Shown: one piece after another, positions 133 to 34,100 of the stretch
Layout: every line of letters starts with the position of its first letter
Numbering within the stretch: the first letter of the stretch is position 1
Origin: Hypoxylon rubiginosum
Lineage: Eukaryota > Ascomycota > Sordariomycetes > Xylariales > Hypoxylaceae
Assembly (NCBI GenBank): GCA_902806565.1
Contig: CADCXA010000051.1
Location: 496,001-560,000 of the forward strand
Direction: 5' to 3'
DNA length: 64,000 bases
Notes under the pieces: generated by a model
What the model was told of the DNA's origin: nothing
The model's input: the letters and a program-made list of their open reading frames with translations, nothing else
The model's database searches: none
Position numbers and translations under genes: made by a program

Positions 133-462
133 TTACTCAGTCTCGTCCGCCTCAGCAATCTCCTTGTAGGTAGGCCTGTACTGACGTTCCTCAAGGCCAG
201 TCTCATTTCCTTCGTCAATCTCCTTGTAGGTGGGTCGGTACTGACGTTTCTCAACGTCGGCCGGCTCTCCTTCAAGAGCCTTCCCGACCTTGAGAGTAGG
301 CCTGTACTGGCGCTCAGCGAGTCCTGTAGAAACCTAGACCTCATATGTTAGACTGAGGCTCATGAGGAAGGTCTCACACGGTTTATCAAAATTACCTACC
401 TCAACAGGTGCTGCGAACGCAACGGCAGCAAGGCCGGAAAGGAAGATAACCGAGGCACGCAT
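133..462 (-). CDS. Candidate secreted RiPP precursor with three QYRPT(Y/L)K cores
   Basis: Two exons are read here: 462-400 and 333-133, joined over a 66 bp intron (399-334, donor GTAGGT, CTAAC branch site, acceptor CTAG). The product is 87 aa. Residues 1-17 form a signal peptide ending in AVAFA, followed by APVE. The rest is acidic and carries three near-identical segments at residues 30-36, 52-58 and 72-78 (QYRPTLK, QYRPTYK, QYRPTYK), each directly after a basic site: ER, KR and ER. Signal peptide plus tyrosine-containing repeats behind Kex2-like sites is the layout of ustiloxin, phomopsin and asperipin precursors, whose cores are excised in the Golgi and cyclised by UstYa oxidases. A UstYa gene lies divergently about 1 kb away, which strongly supports this reading. 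Oddities are the few repeats, only one canonical KR site, and a first core without its second Tyr. An unmodified secreted peptide (KEP-type signal) is an alternative. The splice model is inferred; the repeats are directly visible. Confidence 0.8.
163..309 (-). repeat. Three core-peptide repeats within the RiPP precursor
   Basis: The three core copies lie at 309-289, 243-223 and 183-163 on the minus strand, with spacings of 66 and 60 bases, so they stay in frame. Copies 2 and 3 extend their identity to QYRPTYKEI and are followed by acidic spacers. Copy 1 has diverged after QYRPT. Synonymous differences between copies (for example CGA/AGG for Arg, CCC/CCT for Pro) suggest the peptide is under selection rather than freshly duplicated. 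Confidence 0.85.
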
Positions 463-1476
463 TTTGACGAAGACTTTAAAGATCAGGAAGTATTGGTCCT
501 GAGGTCGAAGAGAAATCTACTGGGCGATTGTGTGGACATAATATGGGGGTGTTACGAGAACTTATACCCGTGTCTAGGTGACGGAACCCGGGGTTGGTGT
601 GAGATGAGAACATTCTACGAGGCACTCGATTCATCGGAAGCACATTCACATGCTCCCCTACATATCATCGGTCCTACATATTGTGCCATATCATCGGGGC
701 CACGATGTTTGCTACACTCCCCCGCGCGCACCGGCCCTACGGTTCCCACTGATGGACCGCAATCCGAGCCAACCAACGAAGATCCCTTCCTCTTCCGCGA
801 TTGGTGGTGACCACGACTCATGGTTAATGCGACGTGATCTAGCGTGGCATTGGTTGACCTTCCCCGATGAGTGAGCGAAGCTAAATATCCAGGCATACAG
901 GCATCTGAAAAGGGGCGATTATACAAGGCTAGGGTGCTCGCGTAGTCCTATCCGTGCCGTCTCCGCGCCGCACGAGTACAAGCTCCTATTACGCCTTACA
1001 GGTCTGAGCGAAGTAGCGTTATTCTCAAATCGTCCAACCCCGATCGCAAACTTCGTATAATTAAGCCAACAATGGCACCATTCCAGGGCTAGCCAACCAG
1101 TCGGGTGCTTGTCAGGGTTGGAGCCGGGGACATTTCTGTACAACACAAACCGTTTTCAAACGAGCAACTCCTCCTCCTCTAGAAGCCAGTCCCATGTGAA
1201 GCAGATGCATGGATCGTTATTAGCCCTGACCTCTCTCGGAGCTACCAATCGCGATTATACTAGGTTTATCATTAAGACAAGTTATTCAGGACATTCTGCC
1301 TCGTCTAGGCGCTTACAAACTTCATCAAGATCGCCAGCTGTGCCGCTTCCTTCGAATGCATCCATGGGATAAGTGCCGGCGGCAAATATTTTACCAATTA
1401 CAAGCTCCCGTAGCGGGGCGTCCAGGTGAAGGACATCGCGGTCCCCTATTTTCACAGTTGCTAAAGACTTCGATCA
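463..1476. promoter_or_regulatory. Divergent intergenic region between RiPP precursor and UstYa gene
   Basis: About 1 kb separates the two divergently transcribed start codons, so it probably holds both promoters. I see no convincing conserved ORF, RNA gene or repeat in it; short open frames on both strands lack family features. A shared bidirectional promoter would suit co-regulated cluster genes, but no specific binding site can be assigned from sequence alone. Confidence 0.4.
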
Positions 1477-2640
1477 ATGTTCACAACTAGCATCTGGTCG
1501 AACATGTCGGATTCCAAGTTCATATATGCGCCGGAACGCTCGTCCGTAGACGGCATATCAAACGAATCCCTCGCGTCGCCGTCTTCCACCCTCGCCATGG
1601 AGGATGAGGAGACGGAAACACTGCTGAGCGAGAAATCACAGCGGGGGAAAGGCCAGATTCGATGGGGATCATGGACAAGCCCTACCATACTATTATCAGC
1701 CCTAAATATTGTCATCTTCTTAATGTCGCTGGCCCTTTTCGTTGCATCGCGAAGCCAAAAGACCCCTCTCAATGCAGAGCTTCGCCGGGCATCAACTTAC
1801 AGTAAGAAAGCATCCCAGCCATCATCCAAAATATACCTAGGTACCTAAAGCAGTTGCTAAAGCAGGACAACAGGCCCCGTATTCGACAGGTTAGACCTAG
1901 AAATGAAGCCGCGGACGGTTCAGGGGACGCTGTTCGCTGCTAAGGAGGGGACCTCGATCGCGCGGGAGCTGCCGAACGCGGCCGCCGACGAGCTGTGGGA
2001 GGAGTGGGAGCTGAGCCGCTTCTACCCGCTGACGCGCGCCGAGATCGTGCGGATGGGCAAGGACCCGACGACGGTGCCGAAGCTCGAGGACGCCGAGTGG
2101 AAGTTAGGCGACGACGCGTACGTAGGCGCGTTCGACGTGTACCACCAGATCCACTGCCTCAACTCCCTCCGGCGGAACGCGTATCGCGGCTACTACAACC
2201 TGACGACGCGCAACCACGCCGTCATGGGTCTGCCCGAGATCCATATCAACCACTGCGTCGACATCCTCCTGCAGGCGCTGCAGTGCAGTGGGAATGTCAA
2301 CCTTATGACATATCATTGGGTCGCCGGACAGGAGTATCCGCAACCTGATATGTGAGTCATCTGTCTCAGCTCTATTGCTGTATGTGCAAGGTCATGTAGA
2401 AAAGCTGACAAGTATCCGGGAAATAGGTCGATCAACCGGCAATGTGTCAACTTTGAGAAGCTCACAGCTTTCAGAAAGGAGAACGGGCTTGACCTGGATA
2501 AGTATGTCCGAATTATGAAGAAGTCCTTACACCCAGGGGTCAAGGAACGCCACCAGAGTGATGCGTATTACTATTGGTACAATGAAACAAATCCAAATCA
2601 TATCGACGGGGCAAACCCTGGGGAAGATTTCAATATGTGA
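1477..2640 (+). CDS. UstYa family (DUF3328) oxidase, RiPP-cyclising type
   Basis: Three exons: 1477-1801, 1874-2351 and 2427-2640 (introns of 72 and 75 bp), giving 338 aa. An in-frame ATG at 1504 is an alternative start. Residues 1-68 are a cytosolic tail, 69-90 a single membrane helix, and the rest the lumenal DUF3328 domain. Across intron 1 the join restores the family element TYSPVFD. The two diagnostic motifs are HQIHC (199-203) and HINHC followed by VD (232-238). Across intron 2 the join gives PDMSINRQCVNF, again typical of the family. UstYa proteins act in RiPP and related pathways (ustiloxin, asperipin, phomopsin), where they catalyse oxidative crosslinks involving tyrosine or other side chains; the HxxHC histidines are thought to bind the metal. 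Its divergent neighbour encodes a Tyr-containing repeat precursor. Exon 2 is much more GC-rich than exons 1 and 3. Confidence 0.93.
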
Positions 2641-25920: not shown

Positions 25921-26237
25921 AAAGGTTTATATTAAAAACTTAAAATAATTTCAATTTAATATAATAATTTTTATAGGTTTTAAGGTTCTTAATTTTTTTT
26001 AATTTAAATAAAAATCTAAGGTTTTATTTATATTTTAAAGTTATTATTTAATTTTTATTTTATTATTATTTTAAACGTTTAATTAATATATATTAATTTT
26101 ATTATTTTAATTTAAATTATTTTTATTTATTTAATTTTAATTAATTTATATATTAATATATAAAATATATATTTATTAAAATTTATAATTATAAGTTTTT
26201 TAAATTAAATAAATTATTTAAATTAAATTATATAATA
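25921..26237 (+). repeat. Outer direct repeat, left copy
   Basis: About 317 bp matching 50352-50645 in the same orientation. This copy has kept more C and G (for example TATAGGTTTTAAGG against TATAAGTTTTAAAA), and substitutions are nearly all transitions, plus one gap of about 22 bp in the right copy. It marks the left edge of the AT block. Confidence 0.8.
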
Positions 26238-27997
26238 TTAAAATTTTTTTTTTAAGTTTTATTTTAAAATATTATTTTATAAATATAAAAATCTATAAGT
26301 TTTTTTAATTACTACTAATAAAAATTCTTAATAAAATATTTAGTTTTTTTATTAAATAAATAATTATAAGGTTTTTAAATTTAATATTTTTTAATAAATC
26401 TTTTTTTTATTTAATTAAATATTTTATTTTTTTTAAGTTTTTTATAAAGTTTTTTACTTTTTTTATTTAATAATTTTTTATTTTAATTAAAATTATTTTT
26501 TATAAAACTTAATTAAAATTAAATAATATTTAATTATTAATATAATAAAATTTAATAAAAAAAACATAAAATAAATTATAAATTTTTTAATTTTTAAAAA
26601 ATATAAGTTTTATAATAATTAAAAAAATTACTTTTTAAATTTTAAAAAGTTTTAATATTTTTTAATTTAACTTTTTTATAAACTTTTTTATTTTTATATT
26701 TTTAATGTTTAATATAATTAATTATTTTTTAATATATTTAAAATTTTTAATATATTTTTTATTTATTTAAAATTTTATTTATTATTAACTTTATTTAAAA
26801 TATTTTTAAATATTTTTTTAAATTTAAGTTATTTAATAAAAAATAAAATTAGTTTTTTAAATTTTTAAATATTTTAAATAAAAAATTATATATCGTGAAA
26901 TAATAATTATATTTAATATAAAAAAATATTATATAAAAAAAAAAAATTTATATTATTATAAATAAATTTAATTATAAAAAATAAATTTTTCTAATTATTT
27001 ATTTTATAATTAATAAATAATTATAAATAAACTTTAAAAATTTAATTAAATTATTTAATTTAATTATTAATTTAAAAATAAAAAACTATATTTATATAAA
27101 ATTTAATATTTATTAATTTAAAGAATTTCTTTTATAAAAATATTATAAACTTAAAATTTTTATTAAAAATAATATTTAATAATATATTATATAATTTTTA
27201 ATATTTTTTAATAAAAATTTTATTAAAATTATTAATTTTTATTTTTTATTTTAAAAGAAATAAAATAAAGTATTTTTATAAAAAAATTTATTATTATTTA
27301 TATAAAATTATATTTATTTAATAATAATAAATTTATAATAAAATTTATTATAATAATATATTAAAATTTATAATAAAGTTTTATAAATTAAAAAAAATTA
27401 TAAAATATATATTTTAGAATTTTATTTTTTTAATATTTTAAACATTTTTTAATATAATTTTTAATTATATTTTTTAAATTAAACCATTAAAAGTTATAAA
27501 TAATTAATTTTATAATTTTATTTATTTTTATATAATTAATAATATATATATTATATTTAAATTTTATAATTTTTTATTATAAAACTATTAATATTTATAA
27601 ATAGTTTTTATAATAAAATAAAATATTTTATATTTTTATAATTTTTTTCAATTAATTCTTTTATTTTAAATAAATAAAATCTTTTAATATAATTTTCTTA
27701 AAACTTTTTATAAATTTTAATAATTATTATAATATTTTAAAATTATAAAATTATTTTAATATAAATAAAATAATAATTAAAATAATAAATATAATTTCTT
27801 ATAAATATAAAAAATATTTTTCTTATAAAATTAAAATAATTAATTATTTTTTAAAATTTTTTTTTTTAAATAATATTATAATAATTTAAATAAAATATTA
27901 ATTTTTTTATTTAAATTTTTTAATTAATAATTAATAATAAATTAATATAAAATAAGTTATTAAGTTTATTAAATTTATTTTTAGTTTAATTATAAGG

Positions 27998-28192
27998 AAT
28001 TAAGTTTATATTATAATATATATATAAAATTATATATAACGTTAATATAATTTATTTTAAATTATATTTATAAGTTATATTTTACGTTTTAAAATTTAAT
28101 TATAATTAATTTATAATTAAATATAATTATTATTTTTATATATATTTTAATATTATTAATTTTTTTATTATTATTATTAATTTAATATTAAT
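27998..28192 (+). repeat. Inner direct repeat, left copy
   Basis: About 195 bp starting AATTAAGTTTATATTATAAT, matching 45223-45418 in direct orientation with only transition differences that I can see. Possibly an LTR or other terminal repeat of an element nested in the outer pair. Confidence 0.8.
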
Positions 28193-31100
28193 TAATAATT
28201 AATTAATAAATTAATTATAAATAAATAAAATTTAAAAAGTAAATAACGTTAAAATTTTATTTTATAAAAAATAATATAAAAGCCACGTTTATATTAATAA
28301 AAATTTTAAGAATATATTTCTATTTATTTTATTATAATATTACTTTATATTTTTAAACTTTTTAAGAATTTTAAAATATAATTTTATATATTTTATTATA
28401 TTATTATTTTATATTTTTTAAATTTATATTTTATTATATAAAAAAATTTAAATTATAATTTTTTTATTAGTTTTTAATAGTTCTAGTTAATTATAAGAAA
28501 GATTTTTTATAGAATTTTTAATTATTATAATTTATTAATTAAACTTAATAATATTTATTATTAATATTTTAATATTATTAATTAATTATAAAAAAAAAGT
28601 TTTTTAATTAATAAATTAATATATATTTTATTATATAAAACTAAGTATTATTTTAAATTTTATATTAATAATATATATATTTTTATATTTTACTTTTAAA
28701 TATTTTTATAACTTATATATAAGTAGTAAGGTTTAGTATTTATAAAATCCTAAGCTTATAAAAAAATAAAAAGTTTTTTTTATAAAAGTTATTTTTTTTT
28801 TATTTATTTTTTTATAAAGTTACTTTTAAGATTATATTTAAATAAATAGTTTTAATATTTAAATTATATTTTAAGACTTTTTAATTTTTATATTATTATA
28901 AATAACTTTATATTATTTTTTTATTTTTTTTTTTATTTTTTTATTATAACATATATATTATAATAAAATAATTTATTTAATAAAATTAATTATTAGTTAA
29001 AATTTATTAAAATAAGGATAAAATAAGATAAATAATATAATATAAAATATATTAAAATTAATTTTTTTAATAAAAAAACAATTATAAAAATAAATAATAT
29101 AATAATATTTAAAACTTATACTATTAAATCTTTTTAAATTTTACCAATAAATTATTATAATAAAACATTATAAAACTAATTTAAAAATAAATTTTATTTT
29201 TAAATAATATTATATTTTAATAATTTTAATAAAGAATTTTATATTAAAATAACTTATTATTTTAATATATATAAAATATATATTTTTATTAATAATTATT
29301 ATATAAATAATATATAATTTTATATAATATATATAATAAAAATATAATTAAAATAACTTAATAAAAAACTTAAAAATTTATTAAAAATAAATTAAAGAAA
29401 TTTATTTTTATATATAATTTATATTATTAAATAAAAATTAAATAAATAATTATAATAATAATAAAATTTAAACTTAATATAAATATATTTTTATTAAATT
29501 TTATTATAAATTATATAAATCTAATAAATATATTTATTAAAATTAATAAAAAATTAAAAATATTATTTTAAATAGTTTATTAATATTATTTATAATTATT
29601 TTTAATATTATAAAAATTAACTTTTTTATTTAAAGTATATTTAAATTAAATAATAATAAATAATATAATAACTTATAAATAATAATAATATAATATTTTA
29701 TAATAATAACTAATATTTTAAACTTAATTAATATTTATATATTTATTAGTTTTATAAAATAATTAATAGTTTTAATTAATATATTAACCTTAATTAATTT
29801 TATTAAATAGTTAATATTTATAACCAGTATATTAATTAACATAAAAATAATATCAAGTTATAAAAAATTACTTATAATATAATTTTATATAAATTTATTA
29901 TAAATTTATATTATTTTATTAAATTATTATATTATTTTTTATTAATAATTTATTAAAAAATAAATAATAAATATTTTATAATTAAATTTTAATTTTATAT
30001 TTAAAAATATAAGGATTTTATTTATTATTAAATATAAAACCTTAAATAAATAACTTAATAATTTAATAATTATATTTATATTTTTTAATATAAAACCTTA
30101 TTTACTAATAATTAACATATTATTAACTATTAATTTATTATTAATAACTAATTTATTATTAATAATTAATTATTATTTTTTAATTATAAAATAATATTTT
30201 TTTATAACTATATTTAAAACCTTATTTATAATAATTAAAACTTTATTTATAATAATTAAAAATTTTATTATAAAGTTTAAAACTTTTATTAATATTTTAT
30301 AGGAATTTATAAATAAATTAAAAGTTTTAATATTAATATTTAAATTTTTTAATAATAAATTAAAATAATTAAACTATAAATATAAACTTTTTATTATATT
30401 AAAAAAATTAATATATAAATTTAAATCTTTTATTAAATTAAAGGAATTAACTTATAAACCTAGATTTTTTATTAAATTTAAATTTGTTTTTAAATTTAAG
30501 ATTTTTACTTTTTAATTAAAAAAGTTAAATATTAAATTTAACGCTTTTATTATTATATTTAAAAAACTATTTAATATATTTTTTACCATTTAATTAATAT
30601 AAAAATATTTAATTATATATTATTATTAGTTTAATTAAAATATATTATAATAATATAAATAAATTTACTAGTATAAAATATAATATTTTAAATAAAAGAT
30701 ATAAAATTTTCTATAATTATTATAATAAAATTAATATTAAGTTTAATTAATATATTTATATATATTTAATTATATTAATTAAATATCTTTTTAAATTATT
30801 ATTATTTATATATCGCTAAAAAAAGATATTTTTTTAATATAATATAATATATAATTAAAAATTATTTCTATTTAATAAAAAATAAATAAATATATATAAG
30901 TTTATAAAAAAAAATAACCTTAATAAAAATAATAATAAAATACCTAAAAAATAACTTATTAATATAAGTAAAAAAGTTAATTAAATATATTTAATAAATC
31001 TATAAAAAAGTTATTATAAATAATCTAAGAAAATATAATTTAAAAAAAAAACTATTTAATATTATATAAAAACATATAAATTTTTTAATAATATTTATAA

Positions 31101-34100
31101 AACTAATAAATACTTTTAAAAATATATATTTAAATATATATAATATAATTAAAAATATATATAATAATAAAAACTATAATTAATATTATATTTATAATTT
31201 TAATTATTAAACTAAATATATATATTATAATAATAAAATTAATAAATAACTATATAATTAAAAAAAATCTTATAAATAAAAATACTTAAAATCTTATAGT
31301 TATTTAAAAAATAAAGGTTAATTTTAATATTAAGATTTTTTATATAATTAAAAATATTTTTAAAAATAAAAACATAGTTAATTTAATTAATATTATAAAA
31401 ACAATAAAAAAAAAAAATGTTTTATTTATAAAAAAAAAAAATATTAATTTATAAAACATTTTAATAAAAAATATTAAAATAAATTTAAAAAATAATAATA
31501 ATATATATAAAAAAACTAATATAATTTTATAAAAAACATTTATATATTATTTTTAATTAATTATAAAAAAATTAATATTAATAGTAATTTTAATTATAAT
31601 AATAATAAAATAAATAATTATAAATAATAAATATTTATATATAATAACTTTTATAATAAATTTAATAATATTAATAAATAATATATTATAAATTATAATA
31701 TAATTAATAATAGTTAAATTATAAATATATTAATAAATTAAATAACTTTTTATATTTTTATTGAAATTAATATAATATATAATTAATAAAAAACATTAAT
31801 ATTAATTGGTTATATAATAATAAATAATAATATTTTTAAATTTTTAATAATATTTTTTATAAATAATAAATATAAATATTAATTTTAAAATATTAAGTTT
31901 TTATTATTTTATTAGTTAAGTTATAAATTTATAAGTTAATTAAATACTTAAAATCGTTTTATATTTTTATATTTTTTTTATTTTTATACTTTAGTTTTTA
32001 TTTTAATTATAATATAATTAATTTTAAAAGGTTATATAAAATACGTTTTATTAAATAGTATTAATTATTAAGCTTTTTATAAAGAATTTATATTAATATT
32101 ATATTTTAAAAAAAAAAAATTTAAATATATATTATATAGTGGTTAATATAATTAATTATATATTTAATATATATTTAAATATTTAATAAAATAATTAAAA
32201 TTTAATTAATAAAATAAGGTGTTAAAATAATATATTTAATTATTAATTAAGTTTTAAATAAGGAAGAATTTAACTAATAAAAGTTTTTAAACTTTTATAA
32301 TTAAAATTTTAAATTTTATAATATAAATTAACATTTTTTAATTTAAAATAATTTTAATTAATAATTTTTTTTATAAATCTTTTTTTATATTATTTGGTTT
32401 TATTATTATTATTTTATAGTTTTAATTAATATTTTTTTTTATAAATTTTTTTATAAATTTTTTTATAATATATTATTTAATTATATAATTATTATTTTAT
32501 ATTTTTAAATAATTTTATATAATCCTTATTAGTATTATTTTTTATTTTATTAATTTATTTTAATTAAAATTTATATAATTTTATAATTTTATATAATATT
32601 AAATTATTTTAAATGGTTTTAATTAATATATAATTTTAATTAATAAATAATTTTAATTAATAGTAACTTTTATTAATTAATTTCTTCTTATAATATTATT
32701 TATTTAATTTTTAGTAATTAATAGATTTTTTTTAGGTTTTTTAGTTATTGTTAATAAATATAAAAAATTTAAATAATAATTTTTATATATTATATTATTT
32801 ATATTAATTTTAACAAATATTTTTTAGTAACTTTTAAGATTAAGAGGTATTTATTAATTATAATAAATATAAATAAAAGTAAATAAGTTATTTTTAAATT
32901 TTTTTTAAAGATTTATTTATAATATTTTTAATATTAAAATTATTTATTTTAAAATGTTTATTATATATTTATTATATTATACTTTTAAAAGTAATTATTA
33001 TTTTTAAATCTTAAAAACTAATCTATAAGTTTTATTAAGTTAAAAATACACTAAAAATTTATTTTATTTTTAATATATTTTTTTTTTAAGGTTTAACTTA
33101 TAATAAATTAATAAAATATAACTTAAAAATATAAAGATTTATTATATTATAATTAGTTTTTTATAAAGTTAATTAAAATTTATTGGTTTTATAAATAATT
33201 AAAAAGTTATAAATAGTTTAAGGTTTTAATTATAAATTTTATTTATTTTATTTATTAAAGTTTTATAAAAAGTTATTATTTTTAATATTATTATTATTAT
33301 AAAGATTTTATAGTTTTAAAAAGGTTTAAATTTAATTTATATATAAAAATTTTTAAGTTATATAAAACGTTATTTAATTTATTATTTTAAAGTTTAAAAT
33401 ATATTTATATTATATTTTTAAAAATAAATATAAATAATTACAAGTATTTAATTATTAAAATAAGTTTTAATTATTATTTAATGTTTATTAAAATTATTTT
33501 TAATATTTTAAAAAGAAGCTTTTATTTATATTAAATTAAATAAATAAGGTAAATAAGTTAACTATATTAATTATTAAGGTTTTAAGTTTTTTTATAAATA
33601 ATAATTATATAATATTAAAATTTATAGTTATTAATAAAATGTTTTTTATTTTAATAAAACCTAGGTATAAAAATTTATTAAAAAAGAATTATATAAAACC
33701 TGGAATTATTAATTAAAACCTTTTTACTTTAATTTATAAATATAATTAAAAAGAACCGTTAAAAAAAAACTTAGTAAAAATTTAACTGGTAATTTTAATA
33801 TAAATTTACACTTTTTTAACGTGTTTATTAAATAAAAGCTTTTTTTTTTCATTTTTATTTAAAAAAAGAAAAATTAATAATCCTTAAGAAATAAGTTTTT
33901 TAAAAGTTATAAATGTTTTTTTTAATTTTAATAGTTGTTTATTAAATGTTATATTTATTTTTAATTAGTTTATAAAAAATATAATAAAAAAAAATTAAAA
34001 AAAAGATATTATAAATAAGTATATATATATATATATAAATATATTAAAAAATATAAAAGTTAGTTTTAAAAATAAATTTTATTACTATATTTTTTAACTA

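What the first reader, a model, noticed from the sequence alone, without database searches (positions are those of the whole stretch)
133..2640. Undescribed dikaritin-type RiPP locus: three-core precursor plus UstYa oxidase
Seen: a spliced 87-aa secretory precursor with three QYRPT(Y/L)K cores behind ER/KR sites, divergent from a DUF3328 gene with HQIHC and HINHC motifs. Known: UstYa proteins cyclise Kex2-released, Tyr-containing core peptides in ustiloxin, phomopsin and asperipin pathways. Inferred: the product is a short, possibly Tyr-Tyr or Tyr-side-chain cyclised peptide. The core QYRPTYK matches no family core that I can recall. The precursor is invisible to simple ORF calling because its intron separates signal peptide and cores. 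The cluster probably continues left of position 1.
Basis: partly seen in the sequence, partly recalled or inferred. Interest (0 to 1): 0.92.

Follow-up and report, generated by a model that had tools for sequence, protein, structure and literature searches.

The report
Hypoxylaceae QY-core peptide and UstYa pair
Wood-inhabiting Hypoxylon fungi and their relatives share a small two-gene locus that most likely makes short, oxidatively modified peptides beginning with Gln-Tyr; it is a new, widespread member of a known kind of fungal peptide pathway.

Summary
The window's assembly matches Hypoxylon rubiginosum MUCL 52887 in size and scaffold number. The predicted 87-aa precursor is identical to an NCBI hypothetical protein of that species; the divergent gene is an UstYa/DUF3328 protein with two HxxHC motifs. 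The pair is not a one-off: a profile search found 18 core-bearing precursors in 18 taxa of Hypoxylaceae and Durotheca, and in 8 of them an UstYa of the same clade is listed with a contig of equal length, with consecutive locus tags in two. (1) The 'ER' sites fit Kex2's LxxR motif: 23 of 23 non-dibasic sites carry an aliphatic P4 residue, whereas two published precursor screens count only dibasic sites. (2) A Tyr-Tyr bond is not the shared chemistry: the second Tyr stands in 21 of 49 cores, and six taxa have one Tyr per core; Gln1-Tyr2 is what is conserved. (3) No larger cluster was found to the left: contig C51 has no second UstYa, no tyrosinase and no S41 peptidase match. The published ustiloxin-like cluster of this fungus is most likely on contig C18. 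Product, modification and role are inferred.

The parts
400..462 (-). precursor exon 1: ATG at 462, signal-like start MRASVIFLSGLAAVAFAAPVE
   Evidence: identical to P0001
334..399 (-). 66-bp intron (GTAGGT...TCTAG, CTAAC branch-like site)
   Evidence: splice supported by P0001 and by the alignable junction in relatives
133..333 (-). precursor exon 2 with three core units and stop codon
289..309 (-). core 1 QYRPTLK, preceded by TGLAER (LxxR site)
223..243 (-). core 2 QYRPTYK, preceded by DVEKR (dibasic site)
163..183 (-). core 3 QYRPTYK, preceded by TGLEER (LxxR site)
463..1503 (.). intergenic region between the divergent genes, about 1.0 kb (first in-frame UstYa ATG at 1477; the 329-aa length of P0006 fits a start at 1504)
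1504..1801 (+). UstYa exon 1: N-terminal tail and transmembrane-like helix (codons about 1678-1752)
1874..2351 (+). UstYa exon 2: catalytic part, Pfam PF11807
2143..2157 (+). HQIHC, motif 1
   Evidence: copper role of the motif from PMC12435403 passages
2242..2256 (+). HINHC, motif 2
   Evidence: copper role of the motif from PMC12435403 passages
2427..2640 (+). UstYa exon 3 and stop codon

Best explanation
A minimal two-gene RiPP locus. The precursor enters the secretory pathway and Kex2 (one kexin P-domain place was found in this genome) cuts it after dibasic KR and monobasic LxxR sites, exposing an N-terminal Gln on each unit. The membrane-anchored, lumen-facing UstYa protein, a copper oxidase by family, oxidises the unit at the conserved Tyr2, most likely by joining Tyr2 to the side chain of a nearby residue (for example position 5, Thr or Ile in 36 of 49 cores) or by another C-H oxidation. 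Gln1 probably closes to pyroglutamate. Shown: gene structure, repeats, conserved sites, and the listing of both genes on equal-length contigs in eight taxa. [quoted passage not shown]
For: Eighteen core-bearing precursors and UstYa relatives of 17 entries in one clade with FastTree support 1.0. Eight taxa have both with equal contig lengths, two with consecutive locus tags. After the signal peptide 44 of 48 [KE]R sites are followed by QY. 23 of 23 non-dibasic sites have Leu/Val/Ile at P4, against 14 of 26 KR sites and 2 of 40 other Arg (one of those 2 is itself a core site, already among the 23). Kex2's extended motif is LxxR, with Glu among the higher-ranked alternative P2 residues (PMC8528282, passages). 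Kexin P-domain at one place in the genome. DUF3328 enzymes CctR, ApnU and AprY are copper- and oxygen-dependent, AprY being a cyclase (PMC12435403, passages). The predicted model has a helix at 59-83 and the two motifs on two separate later helices, which fits the description of CctR; I did not measure distances or model a dimer.
Against: No product, transcript or enzyme activity is known. Sharing a contig is read from equal lengths, not from maps, and some of those contigs are megabases long. Seventeen of the 23 non-dibasic sites are the first site (16 ER, 1 SR) and share descent, so they are not independent. No peptidase or transporter gene was seen beside the pair. Spacers are partly conserved in some species (VHxALEG), so the core may be longer than seven residues. 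Tyr2 is missing or shifted in 3 of 49 cores.
Confidence: 0.75

Rival explanations
1. The precursor is an ordinary Kex2-processed repeat protein whose peptides are secreted linear (with pyroglutamate at most), and the UstYa gene beside it acts on something else.
For: In Umemura's survey 22% of repeat precursors have a DUF3328 gene nearby, so most do not, and some are linear signals (PMC7329392, passages). This genome has many other UstYa matches (43 exon-level matches).
Against: Precursor and UstYa are listed with equal contig lengths in 8 of 18 taxa, with consecutive tags in two, and Tyr2 is nearly invariant (46 of 49).
Confidence: 0.15
2. Only the KR sites are cut. The product in this fungus is then a 36-residue peptide holding cores 2 and 3, and core 1 stays on the pro-region.
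For: KR is the preferred Kex2 site; this precursor has a single dibasic site.
Against: 23 of 23 non-dibasic sites keep an aliphatic P4; outside the inherited first site it is 6 of 6.
Confidence: 0.15
3. The UstYa protein does not close a ring but hydroxylates, halogenates or otherwise oxidises the peptide.
For: DUF3328 proteins hydroxylate (CctR) and halogenate (ApnU).
Against: A nearly invariant Tyr with Pro two residues on suits a Tyr-anchored cross-link, but this is an argument from pattern only.
Confidence: 0.3

Closest known systems
Asperipin-2a pathway (one DUF3328 protein, AprY)
   Same: Secretory repeat precursor, Tyr-containing short core, a single UstYa-type oxidase
   Different: Core there is a different Tyr-rich sequence behind dibasic sites (recalled); here QYxPxxK-like cores behind mixed KR and LxxR sites, often with one Tyr only
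Ustiloxin/phomopsin pathways (dikaritins)
   Same: Signal peptide, repeated cores, DUF3328 enzyme with two HxxHC motifs
   Different: Cores YxIx with a Tyr-Ile ether and a tyrosinase needed; no tyrosinase, second UstYa or S41 peptidase match lies on this contig. This genome has such a set on contig C18
KEX2-processed repeat proteins (KEPs)
   Same: Secreted precursor with repeated units behind Kex2 sites
   Different: Umemura's screen needs at least three repeats of 8 or more residues between KR/KK/RK/RR; none of 18 family members has three such doubly bounded units

Membership tests
Dikaritin, as defined by the UstYa/DUF3328 enzyme (Montalban-Lopez 2021, as quoted in PMC12048977, passages) | DUF3328 protein with two HxxHC motifs encoded with the precursor | tested here: met
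   PF11807 E 1.8e-32; two HxxHC motifs in 17 of 17 clade members
Dikaritin, as defined by the UstYa/DUF3328 enzyme (Montalban-Lopez 2021, as quoted in PMC12048977, passages) | Precursor with N-terminal secretion signal and repeated cores | tested here: met
   signal read by eye, no signal predictor was run
Dikaritin, as defined by the UstYa/DUF3328 enzyme (Montalban-Lopez 2021, as quoted in PMC12048977, passages) | Oxidatively modified (usually Tyr-ether) product | not testable with these tools
   needs LC-MS and NMR
Dikaritin cluster in the older five-gene sense (Ding, as quoted in PMC12048977, passages) | Tyrosinase, methyltransferase, several DUF3328 genes, transporter or peptidase in the cluster | tested here: not met
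   on C51 no tyrosinase, no second UstYa, no S41 peptidase match; methyltransferases, transporters and other peptidases were not searched by profile, only chosen ORFs of the flanks
KEP in the sense of Umemura 2020 | At least three repeats of 8+ residues between KR, KK, RK or RR | tested here: not met
   0 of 18 members have three doubly bounded units; the H. rubiginosum protein has one dibasic site. Counting end segments too, 8 of 18 have three or more segments of 8+ residues, H. rubiginosum not among them
Ustiloxin/phomopsin type precursor | YxIx core | tested here: not met
   the three cores of the window are QYRPT(Y/L)K; in relatives Y-x-I occurs in QYDIAAL, 3 of 49 cores

The most novel reading that the evidence does not exclude
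The pair is a family-wide, single-copy peptide signal of Hypoxylaceae rather than a toxin: a conserved Gln-Tyr, UstYa-modified peptide whose middle residues (RPTY, EPIE, DIAA) have diverged between lineages, as expected of a recognition or developmental signal, and released by a mixed LxxR/KR grammar that dibasic-only genome screens overlook.
Probability: 0.25. Interest if true: 0.75.

Novelty: new member of a known kind. Interest (0 to 1): 0.52.

Why it matters
It adds a widespread peptide locus to a fungal family whose gene clusters were reported as rarely conserved (PMC8403587, passages). That all 23 of its non-dibasic sites follow the LxxR rule suggests that screens counting only dibasic sites miss UstYa-linked precursors, which can be tested on existing genomes. 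A two-gene system with natural core variants in 18 taxa is also a compact set for asking which residue UstYa enzymes attack.

Tried and rejected

Counts: P0139 (signal part only, no cores) was dropped from all core counts. The 49 cores were picked by a pattern that favours QY and positions are read from the residue after the site, so two units with an extra or missing first residue count as departures; the unbiased count is 44 of 48 [KE]R sites. P0127 carries extra N-terminal residues as annotated, and I shifted its signal cut-off but not. Alignment and tree used 79 of the 120 listed UstYa proteins, chosen by hand, mostly leaving out unnamed metagenome entries and short fragments; 176 reached the E-value limit. 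The profile search scored only the 7996 candidates sharing most words, so the list of precursors may be incomplete. The Trichoderma RiPP paper PMC7099791 (passages) gave nothing that bears on this core.

Full report
What is there. The minus-strand gene at 462-133 has two exons and a 66-bp intron and encodes an 87-aa protein with a signal-like start and three units, QYRPTLK, QYRPTYK and QYRPTYK. The same protein, letter for letter, is held in NCBI as hypothetical protein F4820DRAFT_444817 of Hypoxylon rubiginosum. The window's assembly has 48,274,338 bases in 70 contigs; Kuhnert and others list H. rubiginosum MUCL 52887 with 48,274,337 bases and 70 scaffolds (PMC8403587, passages). I take the window to be that strain; this is an inference from size. 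The NCBI record has another contig length (407,554 against 656,878 for C51) and is probably another assembly or strain.

The family. A profile search returned 19 proteins, of which 18 carry cores and one (P0139) only the signal part; it scored only the 7996 candidates sharing most words. The 18 come from Hypoxylon, Daldinia, Annulohypoxylon, Parahypoxylon and Durotheca. No second copy was found in the own genome. Seventeen UstYa proteins of these fungi (with Whalleya and Jackrogersella) form one clade with FastTree support 1.0 among 79 proteins compared. In eight taxa (H. rubiginosum, A. moriforme, P. ruwenzoriense, D. eschscholtzii, Hypoxylon sp. FL1150, Hypoxylon sp. FL0543, H. crocopeplum, Durotheca rogersii) precursor and UstYa are listed with a contig of the same length, and in two (AAE478_001035/001036; Daesc_004765/004766) the locus tags are consecutive. 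No map of another species could be read here, and the other 10 of 18 precursors lack such a listing, perhaps because proteins are clustered at 90% identity.

Core grammar. Of 48 [KE]R sites after the signal peptides, 44 are followed by QY. Among 49 cores, position 1 is Gln in 46, position 2 Tyr in 46, position 4 Pro in 40, position 5 Thr or Ile in 36, position 7 Lys in 35, and position 6 is Tyr in only 21. The commonest cores are QYRPTYK (17) and QYEPIEK (11). In H. trugodes, H. texense, Hypoxylon sp. FL1150, H. crocopeplum, A. maeteangense and Hypoxylon sp. CI-4A each core has one Tyr in its first eight residues. A Tyr-Tyr bond within a core therefore cannot be the shared modification; shared chemistry would have to rest on Tyr2. 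Gln at the freed N-terminus suggests pyroglutamate (inference). [quoted passage not shown]

Cleavage sites. Twenty-six sites are KR, 22 ER and one SR. All 23 non-dibasic sites have Leu, Val or Ile at P4; 14 of 26 KR sites do, and 2 of 40 other arginines, one of which is LVER before YRP, a core site already among the 23. Seventeen of the 23 are the first site of their precursor (16 ER, 1 SR) and share descent, so the independent part is smaller: six of six later sites follow the rule. A review gives Kex2 the extended motif LxxR, with aliphatic P4 and Glu among the higher-ranked alternative P2 residues (PMC8528282, passages). The kexin P-domain was found at one place in the genome. Umemura's screen counts only KR, KK, RK and RR with three or more repeats (PMC7329392, passages and part of one section), and Le Marquer's uses KR, RR and KK (PMC6339444, passages). 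None of the 18 members has three doubly bounded units; if end segments are counted too, 8 of 18 reach three segments of eight or more residues, so the miss is certain only under the strict reading. The window's precursor, with one dibasic site, fails both.

The enzyme. Two HxxHC motifs are present in all 17 clade members and in 77 of the 79 compared. The AlphaFold2 model of P0006 (mean pLDDT 78.0, pTM 0.67) has a helix at 59-83 and the two motifs on helices 187-202 and 219-237. CctR, a copper enzyme of this family, is described with a transmembrane helix and one motif on each of two adjacent helices, joined in a dimer (PMC12435403, passages). I did not measure distances or model a dimer. No solved structure resembles the protein in the searches run.

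Surroundings. To the right lie MutS and WD40 domains and glycosyltransferase family 20 and trehalose-phosphatase domains. To the left, about 3 kb of non-coding-looking sequence precede a FAD monooxygenase at C51:491424-493070. On C51 there is no other UstYa match, no tyrosinase match and no S41 peptidase match. In the 20 fetched regions around other UstYa matches, the screen gave five further repeat frames, plus two low-complexity hits in A+T-rich sequence that I set aside. One of the five is an EDYVIS frame on C18 close to UstYa matches, tyrosinases and an S41 peptidase; this fits the ustiloxin-like cluster reported for the species. Seven further UstYa regions could not be fetched.

Novelty. 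Exact core strings occur in none of 5.39 million open papers (QYRPTYK; QYEPIEK, QYRPTY, RQYRP, KRQYEP). Hypoxylon together with dikaritin occurs in one, which names Hypoxylon once, in the table row of type G-6; whether G-6 overlaps this family could not be settled. Subscription papers and supplements were not searched. I rate it a new member of a known kind: a new UstYa-linked precursor family with a mixed cleavage grammar.

Noticed in passing
window 25900-51400; also G000:C51:456001-472000: Tracts of about 5% G+C (811 G and 549 C in 24,000 bases sampled), almost as incompressible as shuffled letters; Tandem Repeats Finder on 26000-32000 found one weak array of 2.1 copies. This is below what I recall for RIP-mutated DNA. 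G exceeds C over 32-40 kb.
   Followed up: partly
L021 9706-9999 (G000:C18:61706-61999), minus: Repeat frame with EDYVIS units near several UstYa matches, tyrosinase matches and an S41 peptidase match; likely the ustiloxin-like cluster reported for this species.
   Followed up: partly
L017 2767-3309 (G000:C9:558767-559309), minus: Repeat frame near an UstYa match with AEYGIVVYSIGKR units.
   Followed up: no
L028 2688-3308 (G000:C21:880688-881308), minus: Repeat frame near UstYa matches with ESPAYYFYFSKR units.
   Followed up: no
L030 7322-7615 (G000:C32:81322-81615), plus: Repeat frame near an UstYa match with IVF/IVY..DVPV..KR units, most without Tyr.
   Followed up: no
L033 2942-3238 (G000:C56:825942-826238), minus: Repeat frame near UstYa matches with DGATxADTDYWLKAKR units.
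   Followed up: no
G000:C51:491424-493070 (left of the window), minus: FAD-binding monooxygenase (PF01494, E 1.6e-81) about 3 kb from the precursor; membership in the locus untested.
   Followed up: partly
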